DNA of 11,764 nt from an uncultured Victivallales bacterium (lineage in GTDB: Bacteria; Verrucomicrobiota; Lentisphaeria; Oligosphaerales; JAFGRS01). Below are positions 1 through 11,764 of the stretch, in pieces. Position numbers and translations under genes: made by a program. The stretch spans positions 1 to 11,764 of the forward strand of contig CAILKC010000933.1 in assembly GCA_903834675.1 (NCBI GenBank), given 5' to 3'. Within the stretch, counting starts at the first letter, position 1. Each line of letters starts with the position of its first letter. The notes under the pieces were generated by a model. That model was given only the letters and a program-made list of their open reading frames with translations. It was not told the origin of the DNA and searched no databases.

Positions 1-3000
1 AGCGCCTCGGCGTCAAGCCCGCCCAGAGCGGGGTGGTCAGCCAAGGTTGGGAAACCGCGTCGGGTCAACTGCCGCGCGACGCGCAGTCCGAGCCGTCCAC
101 GCAGCCACTCGGGGTCCTGAGCCATGAGCAAGACGGGGCCGCCGCGGCGCAAGTGCCCTTCGATCAGGGCCAGGTCGGCGCCGCCCTTCGCCAGGGCATT
201 GCGACCGACCACCAGCAGGCGGCCAGTGGCCGCCCCATCCCAGGGCGTTGCGGCGACGCCGAGGCTCTTGAGTAAGGCGGCGGTGTCGCCCAGCGGGTCG
301 AGCAGGGCCACTGCGGGGAGCTCTCCTTTGGCGGGTCGGAAGACGCGGAAGGGGAAGCTGTCAGAGTGTCTGGCCTCGCCCATCGAGCACTCGAGTTGGA
401 TAACGCCATAGACGTTGTCGGCGGCCAGCGCTGCGGGCAGGGTGAAGTTCAGGGGGAGAAGCCTGGTGGTAGCGGCGGCGAGTTCGCCCTCCTGCCGCCC
501 CTCGGCGATGCGTTTACCGCCCATCTCCACCTGCCAGGTGGCGCGGAAGCGCTGTGGTGCGCGGCTGTCGTTGAGCAGCGCCAGTTGCTTCGCGACCTTC
601 TCGCCGGTGCGGTAGTGGTGGGTCTTGTCGACGAAGTCGGGCGCGCCGCCGATCCAGGCCAGGGTTGGCTGGTTGGCGGACGAGAGGGCCTCCGACACCG
701 GGGTGGGGATCATGCCTTCCGGCTGGAGGAAGTGCGCGATGTCAGCATCGGCGCTGGCACGCCAGGTGCCCCGCAGGCCGGGCGCGAACGCGGGCATGGT
801 CACGGCCGGACGCGGCTTGAGACCCATGGCCACGGCGGCGGGGCCGGAGTCCTTCTGCCATCCCTGGTTCGACCACGGCACCATGCCGCCGGTGACACCC
901 CAGGTACGCCAGGCACGCCAGGTGTGGCGCGCGAACCGTGCCTGGAGCTGCAGGTAGCCGGGGTGCAACTGCTCCGCGTCGATGGGGTGCCAGGTGCGCC
1001 AGAGTTGCTCCTTCTCGAACGTGGCCGCGAGGGTGGCGCGGTAGGCCGGGGTTTCGGTGCGGTAGGCGTCCGCGCCCTGGTAGATGGCGCAGAACTCCGA
1101 GTACAGCGGTTCGCTGGTCGAGGCCTGGCCGTAGCCTTGACGACCGCGGTGGAAGGAGGTGTAGAGAGGCGTGCCGAACTCGACCATCAGCAGCGGCATA
1201 TCGCCGTCGGTAACCCAGCGCGAGGGCCATTCCTCGCGCTCTTGCAGAGCGGTGAGGCAGAGGTAGGTGTTGGCGGTGTAGATGTCGCCGACCGGGCCGC
1301 CTGCATGCAGCAGCACCGGCCGGCTCGGGTCGACCTGCTTGATCATTGCCACCGCCTCCTCGCCGAAGGCGGCATTGCGGCGCCACTGGGGATCGTCGAT
1401 CCAGGCCCGGCTCTTGGCGCCGATCAGCTCGGGATTCTGGTCCTGGCCATGTCCGAAACGGTTGGCGCCGGTGGCCCAGGCCACCACCGACGGATGGTTG
1501 CGCAACGCCTTGAGCTGGGGCGTCATGCGCTTCTGCCATCCTTCCTTCACCCCCGGCTTGTTCCACTCGCCCAGCAGGCGACCCTGGCACAGGGCGGGGC
1601 AGATGACGAGGAAGCCGAGGCGGTCGGCCTCGATGCACCAGAGGTCGTCGAACTCGGGCCGGCCCCGCTCGTCCCGGTCCCAGGGCCAGAGTTCGATAGC
1701 GTTGAAGCCGTTGGCGCGGAGCCCGGCAAAGAACGCGGCCATCAGCGCGCGGTTGCCGTTGACCAGTGCCTCCGCGTTGACGTGCGTGGGCCGGAGGCGT
1801 ATCTCCTTTTCATTCAGCAGGAAGCGTTTGCCATCGAGGCGGAACTCGCGGACGCCGAAGGGCTCCAGCAGCGCATCGTCGAGGCCGGGCCCCCGAGCGG
1901 TGAGTTCGAGGGTGTAGAGGTTGGGCGTGTCGGTATCCCACAGCCGCGGCTCGGCCCAGTTCCAGGTGGTGGCGAGGGTGCCGATACCAGCGCTGGCGGC
2001 GAGGTTCGCGCTGAACCGCTGGGCCACCGCTCCCTGGGCGTCGCGCACCACGGCGCTCAAGGCGACGGTCCCCGCCGTCGCCAGTCCGGCGTAGTCCAGT
2101 TCGAGCGCGAGGCTGTGTTCGCGTACGGAGGTGCGGATACCGCAGTTTGTGAGATAGGCGCCGGCCGGCCGGCTGGAGAGCTGCGCGTCGCCAATCACGC
2201 CGCGGGTGCCCAGAGTCGCAGTCTCCTTGATGACCTGGCCCTCGCCCGTGCCCATGAAACGGGTGACCTCAGCGGCATCGGTCACCGCCACCAGCTTGAG
2301 GCGCAGGCGGTGGGTCTGCCCGGGGCGGATTGCCGTGGTGAGATCGACCTCGCCACCGGGCCAGGCTATGCGCCCGACCTCCCGGCCGTCGATGAACACC
2401 GCGGCATCGGTCGAAACGCGCTGGAGGTCGAGCAGGATGGCACGTCCAGACCAGGCCGCCGGAATCGTCAGATCGCGCTCGTACCAAGCGGCCGGGGTTT
2501 CGCCGTCGAAGCCATCCCAGGACGGGCCACTGGCTCGAGTTACCCCCTCGAACGCGCCCCAGGCCCGCCAACTGCCGGGCACCCGGACCCAGCCCCAGCC
2601 GGTGTTCTGCGGGGTGACCACCGCGGGACCGAGAGCGGGCTGGAAACGCCAGAGCCCGTTGAGGCAGATGCTGGCACGACGCGGCCCCCGTTCCTCGAGC
2701 GGCTCCTGGCCCCAGGTCAACAACTGACCGGCGGGCAGGCGGCTATCGATGCCTTCGCCACGTTTGGCGAGCAGTTCCACGCGCAGGCCCCGCAGCTCCC
2801 ATTCGCCCACCGCTTCGAAGATGGCCGGCGAGATTTTCACCCTTGCCGCTCCGACCGGGATGGGCACATCCTGCTCGCCCGCGACCCAGCCCTCGGTGGG
2901 CTTCTGCCAATTGCCCGCGACGAGGTGGATGACCTTGTCGTCAGGGCCGAGGAACGTGAGGGCGATGCGGGCGTCGTTCCAGCTTTCCCGCCCGGGAGCG

Positions 3001-3329
3001 AGGGCTCTCACCTGCACCTGGTAGGTGAAGCGCAGGACACTCCAGGCGGGATCGAGCACAAGCTCCTGCGTGGCGGAGGTCGAGGACGGCGCCGTCGTCT
3101 TTAGCGCCAGCGTGGTGGTGTCCCCCTCGGTTACGATCGTCACGCCGGTATCGGCCAAACGCCATCCCGCCGGGCGCCCAGACGCGTCGAGCGCCTTGAA
3201 GTCGCCGTTGGTGATGAGCGATGCCCTCGCTGCAAGACCCTCGCCCGCGGCGGCGGCGCGGGCGGCAAACCCACCCAGCAGCAGAGCGGCAGCGAGAGCG
3301 GAAGCGATGCGCATACGGCGTGTTCTCAT
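1..3329 (-). CDS. Secreted GH2-like glycoside hydrolase (C-terminus cut by window edge)
   Basis: I translated the minus strand from ATG at 3329 and found it open to base 1, giving 1109 residues with no stop. A signal peptide (MRTRRMRIASALAAALLLGG, then an Ala-rich cleavage region near residue 28) predicts export. Residues ~35-190 look like a beta-sandwich binding module (NGDF..., ...GWRL). A GH2 sugar-binding-like domain follows (~220-380; LNGLWRF near N224, VPGSW at 250-254), then an Ig-like domain to about 490. The TIM barrel spans ~491-830 (FGVREFRLDGKRFLLNEKEI, HPSVVAW from H612, MVEFG with candidate nucleophile E717). A C-terminal Ig-like region and a Rossmann-like, glutamine-amidotransferase-like domain (~1010 on) run off the edge. 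At the usual acid/base site (Asn-Glu in GH2) the protein reads GANRFGHGQ (N623, R624). The start is supported by GGAG at 3335-3338. Substrate is unknown; a beta-galactosidase, beta-glucuronidase or related activity on pectin side chains is plausible from context. The gene lies 82 bp after the preceding hydrolase, with no terminator seen between them. Confidence 0.85.
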   Translation of the reverse strand, partial: MRTRRMRIASALAAALLLGGFAARAAAAGEGLAARASLITNGDFKALDASGRPAGWRLADTGVTIVTEGDTTTLALKTTAPSSTSATQELVLDPAWSVLRFTYQVQVRALAPGRESWNDARIALTFLGPDDKVIHLVAGNWQKPTEGWVAGEQDVPIPVGAARVKISPAIFEAVGEWELRGLRVELLAKRGEGIDSRLPAGQLLTWGQEPLEERGPRRASICLNGLWRFQPALGPAVVTPQNTGWGWVRVPGSWRAWGAFEGVTRASGPSWDGFDGETPAAWYERDLTIPAAWSGRAILLDLQRVSTDAAVFIDGREVGRIAWPGGEVDLTTAIRPGQTHRLRLKLVAVTDAAEVTRFMGTGEGQVIKETATLGTRGVIGDAQLSSRPAGAYLTNCGIRTSVREHSLALELDYAGLATAGTVALSAVVRDAQGAVAQRFSANLAASAGIGTLATTWNWAEPRLWDTDTPNLYTLELTARGPGLDDALLEPFGVREFRLDGKRFLLNEKEIRLRPTHVNAEALVNGNRALMAAFFAGLRANGFNAIELWPWDRDERGRPEFDDLWCIEADRLGFLVICPALCQGRLLGEWNKPGVKEGWQKRMTPQLKALRNHPSVVAWATGANRFGHGQDQNPELIGAKSRAWIDDPQWRRNAAFGEEAVAMIKQVDPSRPVLLHAGGPVGDIYTANTYLCLTALQEREEWPSRWVTDGDMPLLMVEFGTPLYTSFHRGRQGYGQASTSEPLYSEFCAIYQGADAYRTETPAYRATLAATFEKEQLWRTWHPIDAEQLHPGYLQLQARFARHTWRAWRTWGVTGGMVPWSNQGWQKDSGPAAVAMGLKPRPAVTMPAFAPGLRGTWRASADADIAHFLQPEGMIPTPVSEALSSANQPTLAWIGGAPDFVDKTHHYRTGEKVAKQLALLNDSRAPQRFRATWQVEMGGKRIAEGRQEGELAAATTRLLPLNFTLPAALAADNVYGVIQLECSMGEARHSDSFPFRVFRPAKGELPAVALLDPLGDTAALLKSLGVAATPWDGAATGRLLVVGRNALAKGGADLALIEGHLRRGGPVLLMAQDPEWLRGRLGLRVARQLTRRGFPTLADHPALGGLDAEA

Positions 3330-3411: not shown

Positions 3412-4383
3412 TCACCCCAGTCGGCGCAGGAAGTCTGTGGCCAGGCGGGCGAGTTGTGTTTTCAGGGCCATGGAAGGGAAGTTGTGGGTGGCGTTGGGGA
3501 TCTCCAGAAACTCGATGGGCAGCTTCTTCTCGCGAGCGTAGTCGCCGAAGTAGGCGAGGGCAGCCGGGGCATCGGGGTCGGCGGTGCCGTAGACCATCAA
3601 GGCCGGCAGGTCGGAGCGCAGATTGGCCAGGTGCTTCTTGGGCGGCTCTTTGGCCTGGCCGCGGCTTTCGGTGGCGGTGGCCTTGGCCGTACGCCCGAGC
3701 CCGGCGGCTGCAGGCGGGGCGGGTGGGGCACCGGCGCCCTCTTTGCGGCGGTTCTGGCCCTTTTTCAGAAAGTGTCCGAAGAGCACATTGGCGACCTGGC
3801 GGAGGTGAAGGTCTCCGCGGCAGAGTCGGCGCCAGGTTTCTCCGTGCAAGGCCTTGCGCAGGTAGACGCCGCCGTAGTGCCAGGTGCGGTGCAGGTCGCG
3901 GCCGAAGGCATCGCCGTCGGAGAATGGGTAGACGCTGAGCAGGATCAGGCCGCGGGCGAGCGGCAGACGCGGCAGGGTGCCGATGGTCACATTGCCGCCC
4001 GAACAGAGGCCGATGTAGACCAGGCGTTTGACGCCGCGGCTGGCCAGCCAGGCCGAGGCCGCCACCAGGTCGTCGGCCATGGTGACGAGGCTGCTCTCCA
4101 GGCCCTCGCCGCCGCTCTCGCCGCGCCCGCGGAAGTCGAAGCGTAAGGTGGCATAGCCCGCGGCGGCCAACTCGCGGCCAAGGAAGGTAAGGACGCCGTG
4201 CGGGCCGCTGCGGTAGCCGCTCCAGCCATGCACCAGCACGACGCCGGTGGGGCACGGCTCGGCGGGCAGGGCCAGGTTGCCGCAGACGAGGGCGCCGCCG
4301 ACGGTCAGGGTGACGACTTCCTCGATCACGTCCGGGGCCAGGTCGAGGCGTGGTTCAAGCCTTGCGGTCAGATCATTTTCCAT
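3412..4383 (-). CDS. Alpha/beta hydrolase with complete catalytic triad
   Basis: This 323-residue protein has no signal peptide and is predicted cytoplasmic. It shows the alpha/beta-hydrolase fold in order: VLVHGWSGYR (oxyanion-hole strand, ~49-58), the LRFDFRGRGESGG loop (~80-92), nucleophile elbow GLCSGGN with S128, acid strand MVYGTADPD (D269 or D271), and NATHNF with catalytic H300. The GLCSG form, with Leu two residues before Ser, recalls S33-type hydrolases and exosortase A system-associated hydrolase 1. A low-complexity Ala/Pro/Lys insert (~205-250) sits before the last strands, where cap domains or linkers often occur. The ATG at 4383 is chosen because it lies in an 11-base overlap (ATGGAAAATGA) with the upstream stop; an upstream in-frame TTG at 4449 would give an odd Arg/His/Pro-rich leader. 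There is no clear Shine-Dalgarno, so translation probably depends on reinitiation after the upstream gene. Substrate is unknown; esterase or deacylase activity on imported oligosaccharides is a guess from context. Confidence 0.85.
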   Translation of the reverse strand: MENDLTARLEPRLDLAPDVIEEVVTLTVGGALVCGNLALPAEPCPTGVVLVHGWSGYRSGPHGVLTFLGRELAAAGYATLRFDFRGRGESGGEGLESSLVTMADDLVAASAWLASRGVKRLVYIGLCSGGNVTIGTLPRLPLARGLILLSVYPFSDGDAFGRDLHRTWHYGGVYLRKALHGETWRRLCRGDLHLRQVANVLFGHFLKKGQNRRKEGAGAPPAPPAAAGLGRTAKATATESRGQAKEPPKKHLANLRSDLPALMVYGTADPDAPAALAYFGDYAREKKLPIEFLEIPNATHNFPSMALKTQLARLATDFLRRLG

Positions 4384-5677
4384 GGGGCAACCCCGGGGGC
4401 TGTGGTGTCGGCGCGGCCAGGCGGTCTTTGCCGTCATCGGGAGGCACAAAGCGGTAGGCGAACCGGCCCAGTCGTCGCATGGCCTCCTGGGCGGGGGCGG
4501 CGGTGAGGGTATCGGTGAAACCGCGCTGGGTGCCGGGGGGGATTTCCAGGATAGCTTCCTGTCCGGCCTGGCTCAAGCGCGCCAGGACCTCGCGGTGCGA
4601 CTCTTCGGCCAGGGTCCCGAGGTTCGCTTCAGGCAGGAGCATAAGCACGGGGCAGTGGATGGCGGCGGCTTGCAGCACCACGCTGCGCTGGGCCATCCAG
4701 GCCAATTGAGCGGCTGGCTCGCGGTTGCAGAACGACTCCCAGTCCGGCCAGCGGTTCTCGCGGCGGGCCAGGCGGTTCCAGTACTCTCGGAAGGGGTCCA
4801 GCCGCTCGGCCTCGGCGACGGCCACACAGGCGGGCAGGGCGGAGCGGGTGGCTGCGAGCAGGGCACTGGTGGCGCCGCGACCGAGGCCGAGCAGGGCGCA
4901 GGAGTGGGGCCGGACGACGGGCAATCCGGCGGCGCCCTGCATGGCGGTGAGAACGTCGGTACACTCGCCGGCCAGGTCTGCCGCGAGGCCCTCGCTGCGG
5001 TATGAGGTCAGGCTGGGGATGTCCGGAGCCGTCAGGCGCTGGCCGCGCAGGCCTGGCGCCATCACGGCGTAACCCTTACGGCACTGCTCACTCAGCCAGG
5101 CAATCTCGTCGGTGCAGATGCCGTCCTGGCCGCGATGCACATAGACCAGGAGCGGAAAGCTGTGCCCCGGCGGGATGGACTGCGGGACCATGAGCAGGCC
5201 ATACTGCGCCCCGGCGTCCGTGGTCCAGGTGACCACAAAGGCAGTCACCAGGTACAGGTCCCGCCCCTCGACCTGATGCAGCGGCTTCAGGCGCCCGTCG
5301 CGCAGCGCGGGCCAGGTCGGCGCGGGCAGGGCCTGGATGCCGTTCAGGGCTTTTCTGCCCGCGGCCCAGGCTGCCGCCGCGGTGTCTCTGGCGTCCTTCG
5401 CCGCGGCTGTGCGGCCGTCGAACCAGCACTGCAGGGCCGCGGCGCAGTCCAGGGCCCCCAGCAGCGGCTGGCGCAGCGCCTCGACCAGGGGCCGCTCGCT
5501 CTCGTGGATGCTGTCTGGCGACTGCCAGGCCAGCCCTTCGAGCCCGGTTCGAACCGAGTCCTGCGCCGCCAATGGGAGCAGGCCGAACGCCAGGCATAGG
5601 CAAAGAACCCGGCTGTGGCCGGAGAGGCCAGAGGCTGAGGCGCCGCGGCGGCGCGGGGATTTCGCCTGGGGGCTCAC
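4373..5677 (-). CDS. Secreted alpha/beta-hydrolase-fold protein lacking the catalytic triad
   Basis: This 434-residue protein starts at GTG 5677, with GGAGG ten bases upstream. A basic N-terminus (KSPRRR) followed by a hydrophobic stretch (~22-38, VLCLCLAFGLLPLAA) predicts a signal peptide cleaved near AAQD. An N-terminal helical region (~45-115) leads to a hydrolase core resembling the acetyl-xylan-esterase/dienelactone-hydrolase superfamily: FPLLVYVHRGQDG (~174-186), GYAVMAPGLRGQ (~202-213), elbow LLGLGRGATSAL (~262-273), LMLLPEANLG (~345-354) and ILEIPPGTQRGF (~376-387). At the elbow GxSxG reads GLGRG, with G266 at the nucleophile position. The expected His in the last motif reads R385 (or Q384), and the acid strand has Glu, not Asp. 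All three positions look substituted, so it is probably a non-catalytic binding or scaffold protein, or uses other residues. The reading frame is intact, which argues against a decaying pseudogene. It shares GTGA with the upstream gene and 11 bases with the downstream one. Confidence 0.8.
   Translation of the reverse strand: MSPQAKSPRRRGASASGLSGHSRVLCLCLAFGLLPLAAQDSVRTGLEGLAWQSPDSIHESERPLVEALRQPLLGALDCAAALQCWFDGRTAAAKDARDTAAAAWAAGRKALNGIQALPAPTWPALRDGRLKPLHQVEGRDLYLVTAFVVTWTTDAGAQYGLLMVPQSIPPGHSFPLLVYVHRGQDGICTDEIAWLSEQCRKGYAVMAPGLRGQRLTAPDIPSLTSYRSEGLAADLAGECTDVLTAMQGAAGLPVVRPHSCALLGLGRGATSALLAATRSALPACVAVAEAERLDPFREYWNRLARRENRWPDWESFCNREPAAQLAWMAQRSVVLQAAAIHCPVLMLLPEANLGTLAEESHREVLARLSQAGQEAILEIPPGTQRGFTDTLTAAPAQEAMRRLGRFAYRFVPPDDGKDRLAAPTPQPPGLPHGK
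5674..5677 (-). other. GTGA start/stop overlap between the first two hydrolase genes
   Basis: The TGA of the upstream hydrolase (5676-5674) overlaps the GTG of the next (5677-5675). A GGAGG lies within the 3' end of the upstream gene at 5688-5692. This arrangement indicates translational coupling of the two products. Confidence 0.8.
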
Positions 5678-6522
5678 GGCGAGCGAGCCTCCGGCGGGCT
5701 GGCCGGTCCGTGCAGCGCTTCGATAAAGGCCAGCACTGCGTCCTGGACCGCATCAGACTCGTAGTACTCGAGTTGGCCCCAGAAGGGCTTATCACGCACG
5801 ACCTCGGCCCGGCCCGGGGCTGGCGCCGCCGCGCGCTCGGTCAGCGATTTCCAAGCCGGCGGAAAGGTCTTCGATCCCGAGACACGCAGCACTTGCAGCG
5901 GGCAGTCCGGGCTCAGGCTTGCCAGGCGGGAGGCCAAGCTCTCGGGACGCAGCTCGGTGGCCAAGCGGGCGCTGACCTCGAAACCGCCAAAGTCGACCGT
6001 CTCGCCGCGGCTCCAGCGCGCGGCACTGTCGTCGGCGCCGGCGTGGGTGCCGGAGACGACCTGTTTGAGGCGCTCACGGCGGTCCAGGTCCCGCAGGCAT
6101 TCTTCGCCTGAGAGCACGGGCTCCACCAGGGCCACGGCTCGGGCGCCGCGGTGGGTGGCCGCGTGCAGCGCCTGGAAGGCGCCCAGGCGGACGCCGACGG
6201 CCACCCAGGCGCCGACTGCGGTCTGGGTTTGGGCAAAAGCGCCCGCGGCGACGGCGTCGTCCTGCCAATCCTGCCAGGTAGCGGCGGCGTGGGTGCCGGC
6301 GCTCTCGCCGGTGCCGCTGAGATCGAAGCGCAAGGTGGTGAAGCCGCGCTCGGCACAAGCGCGCGCCAGGCGCACCAGCACTCGGAAGGCGCTCCTTTTC
6401 TCCTCACCGAAGGCATCGTAGAGCACGACTGCCAGCGCTCGCGGGCGGGCTGGCCGGAAGACCGTTCCGTACAGCCGTCGCGACCCGACAGTCAGATAGC
6501 CACTGGTCTGCGTCTGACCCAT
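5674..6522 (-). CDS. Exosortase A system-associated hydrolase 2-like protein (Arg at nucleophile site)
   Basis: This 282-residue alpha/beta-hydrolase-fold protein has no signal peptide or membrane segment. From family knowledge I match it to the hydrolase 2 family linked to exosortase A systems (TIGR03101). Shared features are an early FGEEKRSAFR motif (~38-47; the family has FAEEMNKSR), LRFDLSGTGESAG (~64-76), a WQDWQDD segment (~83-89), elbow VGVRLGAFQAL (~109-119; family GLRLGALLAL), EPVLSGEECL (~134-143) and a late PFWGQLE (~246-252). At the elbow, GVRLG puts R112 where Ser normally lies. From memory this substitution is common in the family, so it is likely ancestral. I chose ATG 6522 because GGGAG sits seven bases upstream (6530-6534); the longer GTG start at 6567 has no comparable site. 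The gene begins 66 bp after the lyase and overlaps the next gene by GTGA. No exosortase, glycosyltransferase or PEP-CTERM tail is seen in the window. Function is unknown. Confidence 0.8.
   Translation of the reverse strand: MGQTQTSGYLTVGSRRLYGTVFRPARPRALAVVLYDAFGEEKRSAFRVLVRLARACAERGFTTLRFDLSGTGESAGTHAAATWQDWQDDAVAAGAFAQTQTAVGAWVAVGVRLGAFQALHAATHRGARAVALVEPVLSGEECLRDLDRRERLKQVVSGTHAGADDSAARWSRGETVDFGGFEVSARLATELRPESLASRLASLSPDCPLQVLRVSGSKTFPPAWKSLTERAAAPAPGRAEVVRDKPFWGQLEYYESDAVQDAVLAFIEALHGPASPPEARSP
5688..5692 (-). promoter_or_regulatory. Ribosome binding site of the second hydrolase
   Basis: GGAGG on the minus strand, ten bases before the GTG at 5677 and inside the upstream coding sequence. 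It supports use of this rare-class start codon. Confidence 0.55.
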
Positions 6523-11617: not shown

Positions 11618-11662
11618 GGCTCCAGGGCCGCACAGCGCACGATAACGCAATCCCCTGGAGCC
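11618..11662. repeat. Ten-base inverted repeat at the array's inner edge
   Basis: ggctccaggg (11618-11627) is the exact reverse complement of ccctggagcc (11653-11662), separated by 25 bases. The right arm is the start of the tandem array, so an inverted copy of the repeat head faces the array. Confidence 0.55.
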
Positions 11663-11764
11663 GGCGGTCTCCGCCGTATCCCCTGGAGCCGTATCCCCTG
11701 GAGCCGGCGGTCTCCGCCGTATCCCCTGGAGCCGTATCCCCTGGAGCCGGCGGTCTCCGCCGTA
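11651..11764. repeat. Perfect 43-bp compound tandem repeat, 2.65 copies, running into the edge
   Basis: The array alternates a 28-base unit (11651-11678, 11694-11721, 11737-11764) with a 15-base unit (11679-11693, 11722-11736). Both begin tcccctggagcc and end gta; the short one lacks the middle of the long one. All copies are identical. Each long unit contains a six-pair hairpin, cggcgg-tct-ccgccg. The 43-bp period is not a multiple of three, so no single frame codes through it. The window ends exactly at a unit boundary, which may mark a contig end at a repeat. The copies are too short and too close together for a CRISPR array. Confidence 0.9.

What the first reader, a model, noticed from the sequence alone, without database searches (positions are those of the whole stretch)
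3412..6522. Three translationally coupled alpha/beta hydrolases, two without a nucleophile, inside a pectin cluster
Three different hydrolase-fold genes follow one another with GTGA and ATGGAAAATGA overlaps. The first has Arg (R112) and the second Gly (G266) at the nucleophile elbow; only the third keeps Ser-Asp-His. The order is cytoplasmic, secreted, cytoplasmic. Tight coupling of two apparent pseudoenzymes to one intact enzyme suggests a fixed stoichiometry, for example a sensor, chaperone or binding partner plus an esterase. They sit between a rhamnogalacturonan lyase and a GH2-like enzyme, so an ester-decorated pectin fragment is a plausible ligand. No such three-gene module is known to me.
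Basis: partly seen in the sequence, partly recalled or inferred. Interest (0 to 1): 0.72.

Follow-up and report, generated by a model that had tools for sequence, protein, structure and literature searches.

The report
Paired hydrolases with dedicated carrier protein
Two of these three neighbouring genes encode a catalytically dead hydrolase and a cysteine-type hydrolase that stay together, sometimes fused into one protein, in distant bacteria and tend to occur with a special acyl carrier protein, which points to a two-part enzyme that moves acyl or amino-acid groups rather than a pectin-digesting esterase.

Summary
The third protein has no Ser nucleophile: its elbow is G-L-C-S-G, so position 127 is Cys, invariant in 121 of 121 homologue rows. 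H1-H2-H3 follow one another in 19 of 27 genome loci found with H1, but not beside pectin lyases. H1 (Arg, non-catalytic) and H3 (Cys) are the core: both occur in 35 of 41 genomes having either, they are fused in several lineages, and they are distant relatives, below cut-off, of NCBIfam 'hydrolase 2' and 'hydrolase 1, exosortase A-associated'. H2 is a secreted S9-like protein with Ser and His in most genomes read; only the window's clade lost them. In 9 of 12 non-trio loci of the phylum a carrier protein gene is directly upstream of H1. That carrier protein, unlinked in trio genomes, is in 36 of 41 H1/H3 genomes and 1 of 156 others. A fused proteobacterial relative stands beside an amino acid:[carrier protein] ligase operon in 4 of 7 annotated loci. 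Best reading: a carrier-protein-dependent Cys acyl(aminoacyl)transferase or thioesterase with a dead partner subunit. The chemistry is inferred.

The parts
5674..6522 (-). H1: cytoplasmic alpha/beta-hydrolase-fold subunit, Arg112 at the nucleophile elbow (G-V-R-L-G); Trp248 in the conserved DKPFWGQ stretch lies about where a catalytic His is expected (inferred); distant TIGR03101 (hydr2_PEP) relative
   Evidence: 109.9 bits, cut-off 202.75; R 55/55; R aligns with Ser of 9pir
4373..5677 (-). H2: secreted S9/acylaminoacyl-peptidase-like alpha/beta hydrolase; Gly266 replaces Ser and Arg replaces His here
3412..4383 (-). H3: cytoplasmic alpha/beta hydrolase with Cys127 at the nucleophile elbow (G-L-C-S-G), D269/D271 and H300; distant TIGR03100 (hydr1_PEP) relative
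   Evidence: 79.8 bits, cut-off 168.45; C 121/121
5674..5677 (-). GTGA overlap: H1 stop and H2 start
   Evidence: a 4-base overlap also in L001
4373..4383 (-). ATGGAAAATGA overlap: H3 start and H2 stop
   Evidence: an 11-base overlap also in L001
6589..9552 (-). rhamnogalacturonan lyase PL11 with C-terminal CBM35; neighbour, not part of the conserved module
3..3329 (-). GH2-like protein (runs off the window); neighbour, no BLASTP similarity to the GH2 of the proteobacterial ligase operon

Best explanation
H1 and H3 form one two-subunit unit. H3 is a Cys-Asp-His alpha/beta hydrolase that takes an acyl or aminoacyl group from the phosphopantetheine thioester of a dedicated small carrier protein onto Cys127 and hands it to an acceptor (or to water). 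H1 is a catalytically dead sister subunit that docks the carrier protein or acceptor. The acceptor is probably a glycan or envelope lipid, given the GT2 encoded with the carrier protein. H2 is an accessory that some lineages have and others lack (gain or loss not resolved): a secreted hydrolase that may act on the exported product; in the window's clade it lost Ser and His but is still kept by selection and probably only binds. Shown: pairing, fusion, residue conservation, carrier-protein adjacency and co-occurrence, loss of H2 residues. Inferred: physical complex, thioester chemistry, acceptor, H2's role.
For: H1 and H3: both in 35, H1 only 3, H3 only 3, neither 156 of 197 genomes of the class. 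H1-H2-H3 order in 19 of 27 loci found with H1. Single-chain H1-H3 fusions in L007, L031, L073, L075 and in Proteobacteria; the H1 tree needs 4 changes of the fusion label, 3 forced by well-supported branches. Elbow residues: 54 H1-type domains R 50, G 3, S 1 (the S in a lone hydrolase outside any pair); 50 H3-type domains C 50. Carrier protein directly upstream of H1 in 9 of 12 non-trio loci of the phylum. Profile of such carrier proteins (E<=1e-13): 36 of 41 H1/H3 genomes, 1 of 156 others; the DS attachment site is present in the 24 sequences printed. A fused proteobacterial relative adjoins ACP / acyl-CoA dehydrogenase / amino acid--[ACP] ligase / DUF1839 / GH2 in 4 of 7 annotated loci read, on the same strand in 3. 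The carrier-protein gene run of the window's relatives G001 and G002 has a GT2 37-41% identical to those beside ACP-H1-H3 in L031, L032 and L039.
Against: No structure or complex could be predicted. In trio genomes the carrier protein is unlinked; in 20 regions read it recurs with TRAP-transporter, sugar-isomerase-like and Usp genes, not with a recognised activating ligase. Amino acid:[carrier protein] ligase was not found at E<=1e-5 in 37 of the 38 H1 genomes (one, G046, not searched; the matching control record had supplied a row to the profile), nor DUF1839 in 197 (no control rang): the loading enzyme here is unknown. Four of the 36 positive genomes supplied rows to the carrier-protein profile, and the 1e-13 line was drawn after seeing scores (one search gives other lines). 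Fisher counts ignore kinship. Three rhizobial N-domains have Gly, not Arg. In the H1 tree the trio label is not one clade (8 changes).
Confidence: 0.58

Rival explanations
1. Pectin side-chain esterase module: the three proteins de-esterify acetylated or methylated pectin fragments, with two carbohydrate-binding pseudoenzymes and one active enzyme.
For: PL11 and GH2-like neighbours in the window; PL11 is commoner among H1/H3 genomes, 22 of 41 against 24 of 156 others, Fisher p 1.5e-6 ignoring kinship; in G018 a PL11 lies 3.3 kb from H2.
Against: H1 and H3 show no obvious export signal on reading (no predictor run). No other of the 41 genomes has PL11 within 10 kb of one of the three genes, as far as contigs reach. 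Genes upstream of H1 vary: methyltransferase, PhoU-like, BNR, TPR, Kdo-kinase-like, lnt or MsbA-like ABC. Nineteen of the 41 have no PL11 found. Proteobacterial relatives adjoin carrier-protein operons or exopolysaccharide genes in 6 of 7 annotated loci.
Confidence: 0.1
2. An exosortase/PEP-CTERM accessory pair: these are simply hydr2/hydr1 of an exosortase A locus.
For: Best NCBIfam hits are TIGR03101 and TIGR03100 for H1 and H3.
Against: The window's scores are about half the curated cut-offs and 0 of 337 phylum genomes exceed that of TIGR03101. Exosortase occurs in 23 of 41 H1/H3 genomes and 67 of 156 others, p 0.16, on other contigs or, in G011, megabases away.
Confidence: 0.08
3. A cytoplasmic thioesterase or editing unit: the Cys enzyme only unloads mis-charged carrier protein (hydrolysis), and H1 is its carrier-protein docking subunit.
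For: Same carrier-protein evidence; editing thioesterases beside carrier proteins are common (recalled).
Against: A Cys nucleophile on this fold is, as I recall, more usual in acyl transfer than in plain hydrolysis (not tested); GT2 and exopolysaccharide neighbours suggest an acceptor.
Confidence: 0.2

Closest known systems
NCBIfam TIGR03101 / TIGR03100, hydrolase 2 / hydrolase 1, exosortase A system-associated
   Same: H1 and H3 hit them best, one each; the family names describe a two-hydrolase set.
   Different: Scores are about half the cut-offs (109.9 of 202.75; 79.8 of 168.45); no association with exosortase; a third, secreted member lies between the two here. The elbow residues of the curated members were not read.
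Proteobacterial fused alpha/beta hydrolase beside the amino acid--[acyl-carrier-protein] ligase operon (Mycetohabitans, Azospirillum, Rhizobium rhizoryzae)
   Same: N-domain without Ser (Arg or Gly), C-domain with Cys, same order as H1-H3; TIGR03101-like then TIGR03100-like in the two scanned.
   Different: One chain; carrier protein, ligase, DUF1839 and acyl-CoA dehydrogenase next to it; the ligase was not found in 37 H1 genomes here. In R. rhizoryzae the fusion is on the opposite strand to the operon.
Dienelactone-hydrolase-type Cys hydrolases and Cys alpha/beta acyltransferases (for example PhaC, recalled)
   Same: Cys at the nucleophile elbow with Asp and His.
   Different: H3 is nearest by profile to Ser hydrolases such as 9pjb (MHETase) and cinnamoyl/feruloyl esterases, with its own conserved stretch SVYPFSDGD.
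S9 prolyl-oligopeptidase / acylaminoacyl peptidase catalytic domain
   Same: The H2 profile matches 5l8s, DPP4 and related chains; 23 of 39 rows have an HSFG elbow and a His.
   Different: No Pfam family reached E 0.001 for the window's H2; in the window's clade Ser and, in all but one readable row, His are gone.

Membership tests
TIGR03101 (hydr2_PEP) | score above the curated cut-off | tested here: not met
   109.9 against 202.75 bits; 0 of 337 phylum genomes over cut-off
TIGR03100 (hydr1_PEP) | score above the curated cut-off | tested here: not met
   79.8 against 168.45 bits
TIGR03100/TIGR03101 pair | both hydrolases together | tested here: met
   H1 and H3 together in 35 of 41 genomes having either
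TIGR03100/TIGR03101 pair | association with exosortase | tested here: not met
   23 of 41 against 67 of 156, p 0.16
amino acid:[carrier protein] ligase operon module | carrier protein dedicated to the unit | tested here: met
   adjacent to H1 in 9 of 12 non-trio loci; in 36 of 41 H1/H3 genomes, 1 of 156 others; none within the window or the 27 loci
amino acid:[carrier protein] ligase operon module | ligase and DUF1839 present | tested here: not met
   ligase not found in 37 H1 genomes; DUF1839 0 of 197 without a ringing control
Ser-Asp-His esterase | Ser at the nucleophile elbow of H3 | tested here: not met
   Cys127 in 121 of 121, aligned with the Ser of solved hydrolases
S9 peptidase | intact Ser and His in H2 | tested here: not met
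   Gly and Arg in the window's H2; Ser in 23 and Gly in 16 of 39 rows
pectin esterase | activity on pectin esters | not testable with these tools
   needs an assay

The most novel reading that the evidence does not exclude
A previously unrecognised class of carrier-protein-dependent acyl or aminoacyl transferase, built from a Cys alpha/beta hydrolase and an obligate Arg-elbow pseudo-hydrolase, which decorates a glycan or lipid. Its fused proteobacterial form would be the missing transfer enzyme of the amino acid:[carrier protein] ligase pathway, whose end product I recall as unknown; the Lentisphaeria trio would be a variant with an exported S9-like partner that became a pseudoenzyme in one clade.
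Probability: 0.35. Interest if true: 0.85.

Novelty: new variant of a known kind. Interest (0 to 1): 0.62.

Why it matters
It turns a local curiosity into a testable enzyme system with a named substrate carrier. The pair was read in Lentisphaeria, in other genomes of the phylum and in Proteobacteria, in each pair or fusion read with a non-Ser domain and a Cys domain, and in the class searched its carrier protein tracks it across genomes. If the carrier protein is its substrate, the role of the uncharacterised hydrolase 1/hydrolase 2 families and of the amino acid:[carrier protein] ligase operon becomes directly testable. H2 gives a clean natural contrast for loss of catalysis with retention of the gene.

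Tried and rejected
Pectin-module idea: tested by a PL11 search and by reading some genes upstream of H1; setting not conserved where visible, though PL11 is commoner in H1/H3 genomes. Exosortase link: no association. The window's GH2-like gene as the GH2 of the proteobacterial operon: no similarity (BLASTP E 1.0). Viral contigs: 5 pattern matches, none a relative. Literature: searches (62, 63 and 64 returned no paper) listed no paper on a hydrolase 1/hydrolase 2 pair; I saw listings only. In PMC1569441 a find for hydrolase, acyl carrier, ligase and the two family names gave 0 passages. Statements on PhaC, on Cys hydrolases favouring transfer, on editing thioesterases and on the ligase pathway's unknown end product are recalled.

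Rows dropped before counts: 12 loci that repeat a genome region already counted, 7 repeated or fragment loci, the H1 hits of G045 and G047, because they are the H3 gene seen by the H1 profile. Protein searches scored only the roughly 8000 candidates sharing most words. Several further frames of 557-679 residues (G331, G336, G350, G369) may be fusions but were not read.
Full report
What is in the window. The run on the minus strand is GatC, GatA, PL11 lyase, H1 (6522-5674), H2 (5677-4373), H3 (4383-3412) and a GH2-like gene that leaves the window. H1 has R112 at the elbow, H2 has G266. H3 has G-L-C-S-G, so the canonical nucleophile position is Cys127, not Ser. By profile alignment to solved structures the H3 Cys sits on the elbow Ser of 9pjb, 9pir and 9w30 and the H1 Arg on that of 9pir. 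Homologue searches gave 56, 16 and 176 proteins for H1, H2 and H3 (for H3 the 120 listed were used). With the queries, R is found in 55 of 55 readable H1 rows of 57, G in 17 of 17 H2 rows and C in 121 of 121 H3 rows.

Conserved trio. One scan of genome contigs with the H1 alignment gave 27 loci; 26 record titles name Lentisphaerae, Lentisphaeria, Victivallales, Oligosphaera, Oligosphaeraceae, Verrucomicrobia or Kiritimatiellota and one is an uncultured bacterium. H1-H2-H3 follow one another on one strand in 19 of 27. In 2 more the contig ends after H2 (L003, L017), in 1 H1-H2 are together and H3 is elsewhere (L014), in 1 H1 and H3 are a single 610-residue protein without H2 (L007), and in 4 H1 stands without H2 or H3 (L012, L015, L018, L025). 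In three of those last four genomes H2 and H3 are neighbours elsewhere (G012, G015, G025). In the closest relative, L001, the overlaps have the same lengths, 4 and 11 bases.

Co-occurrence. In 197 genomes of the class, H1 is in 38, H3 in 38, both in 35, neither in 156; H2 is in 31, all of which have H1 or H3. Fisher p values ignore kinship and are only a guide. Of the six genomes with one of the two, four have the gene at or near a contig end (G003, G017, G045, G047).

H2 is usually enzyme-like. H2 is S9/acylaminoacyl-peptidase-like. Among 39 H2 rows (some near-copies), 23 have GHSFG or AHSFG and a His, and 16 have Gly at the elbow; the two groups lie on the two sides of one branch (100/100), and of 15 Gly rows readable at the His column one (P0012) has His. 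The loci with Gly, L001-L004, form with the window one clade of the H1 tree (100/97). Ser is the rule in the wider fold, so G266 is taken as a clade-specific loss. H2 is still under selection there: dN/dS is 0.31 (window-L001) and 0.25 (L002-L003), against 0.12 and 0.15 for H1 and 0.16 for H3 (window-L001 only).

Beyond the trio. In more distant genomes of the phylum H1 and H3 occur without H2. I read 12 such loci (L031, L032, L033, L038, L039, L040, L041, L060, L061, L066, L073, L075). H1 and H3 are adjacent or fused in 10; in L040 they are 2.7 kb apart and in L041 H3 is on another contig. A carrier protein gene is directly upstream of H1 in 9 (in L033 cut by the contig end); it was not seen within about 1.4 kb in L073 and L075, and L040 begins inside H1. 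No such gene was found in the 27 loci or in the window. A GT2 stands before the carrier protein in L031, L032 and L039. Fusions were read in L007, L031, L073, L075 and in Proteobacteria; the H1 tree needs 4 changes of that label, of which 3 are forced by well-supported branches. The trio label needs 8 changes, and trio rows L020, L028 and L029 fall at the base of the pair group with partly weak support, so whether H2 was gained or lost is open.

Proteobacteria. A protein search in plasmids and chromids with the Mycetohabitans fusion found 54 records, 50 covering at least 80% of the query. In the two fusions scanned the N-half resembles TIGR03101 and the C-half TIGR03100. In 4 of 7 annotated loci that carry the fusion (L051, L052, L053, L056) the neighbours are acyl carrier protein, acyl-CoA dehydrogenase, amino acid--[acyl-carrier-protein] ligase, DUF1839 and GH2; in three the fusion is the last gene of that run, in L053 it is on the opposite strand next to it. 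In Shinella and R. tumorigenes the neighbours are exopolysaccharide genes, in Caballeronia neither; three further loci had no annotation. Over 54 H1-type domains the elbow is R in 50, G in 3 (all Rhizobiaceae) and S in 1, a lone Deinococcus hydrolase outside any pair; over 50 H3-type domains it is C in 50.

The carrier protein tracks the pair. A profile made from seven carrier proteins beside pairs was run on the 197 genomes. At E<=1e-13 it is in 36 of 41 genomes with H1 or H3 and 1 of 156 others. At 1e-16 the counts are 34 and 1, at 1e-20 28 and 0, at 1e-12 36 and 2, and at 1e-11 36 and 9, as general carrier proteins begin to appear; at 1e-8 139 of 197 genomes match. The line was drawn after seeing the scores, and 4 of the 36 genomes contributed to the profile. 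The five without it are G014, G033, G047, G052 and G071. In trio genomes it is unlinked to the trio. I read 20 of these regions (19 H1/H3 genomes and G059): the same clusters recur around it, in 15, 11, 10 and 10 of 20, and their annotated representatives are a Usp, a TRAP DctM, a TRAP DctP and a TIM-barrel sugar isomerase. In the window's relatives G001 and G002 that run also has a GT2, 37-41% identical to those beside ACP-H1-H3 in L031, L032 and L039. A scyllo-inosose-dehydrogenase-like gene follows the carrier protein in G016 and G027 (a 78% identical frame also in G018) and precedes H1 in G014, at about 81% identity.

What it is not. PL11 is in 46 of 197 genomes and in 22 of the 41 (p 1.5e-6 ignoring kinship), but is within 10 kb of one of the three genes only in G018 (3.3 kb from H2); in G001 it is 21.5 kb and in G015 78 kb away on the same contig, and many contigs are too short to tell. 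Neighbours upstream of H1 differ between loci; recurrent ones are a gene whose annotated member is lnt, in seven loci, and two MsbA-like ABC transporter genes in three. Exosortase shows no association. Amino acid:[carrier protein] ligase was not found in 37 H1 genomes; the control record that matched had supplied a row to the profile. DUF1839 was not found in 197, with no control ringing.

Mechanism. Shown: a conserved pair of a non-Ser and a Cys hydrolase fold, repeated fusion, a carrier protein that is adjacent in some lineages and co-occurring in others, and an accessory H2 that lost its catalytic residues in one clade. Inferred: that the pair is a physical complex, that Cys127 receives an acyl or aminoacyl group from the carrier protein, that the acceptor is a glycan or envelope component, and that H2 acts outside on the product. 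No structure, complex or activity was tested.

Verdict. A real, conserved module, distantly related to the exosortase-associated hydrolase pair but not a member by score or by association.

Noticed in passing
window 11650-11764: A perfect 43-base tandem repeat (2.7 copies) at the right edge of the window, upstream of gatC.
   Followed up: no
L051, L052, L053, L056: A gene set acyl carrier protein / acyl-CoA dehydrogenase / amino acid--[ACP] ligase / DUF1839 / GH2 next to the fused non-Ser plus Cys hydrolase on proteobacterial plasmids. The one literature search that ran on it returned no paper; another failed.
   Followed up: partly
L076, L078-L086, L088, L090-L092: In trio and related genomes the dedicated carrier protein gene lies by Usp-like and often TRAP-transporter and TIM-barrel isomerase genes, an odd setting for a carrier protein (representatives annotated).
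   Followed up: partly
L095 (G059:C312): The only one of 156 genomes without H1 and H3 that has the dedicated carrier protein at E<=1e-13; a GT2 of the same cluster lies near it. Assembly gap or true loss is unknown.
   Followed up: no
L053, L054, L059: Rhizobiaceae fusions have Gly instead of Arg at the N-domain elbow (AQGIG, GHGIG, GHGVG).
   Followed up: no
L010, L016, L019, L022, L023, L026, L027: A gene of one cluster (annotated in L019 as apolipoprotein N-acyltransferase lnt), mostly after hisD and argS, lies just upstream of H1.
   Followed up: partly
L013 H2, 10870-12225: This H2 has a lipobox-like N-terminus (LISSC), unlike the signal-peptide type of the others.
   Followed up: no
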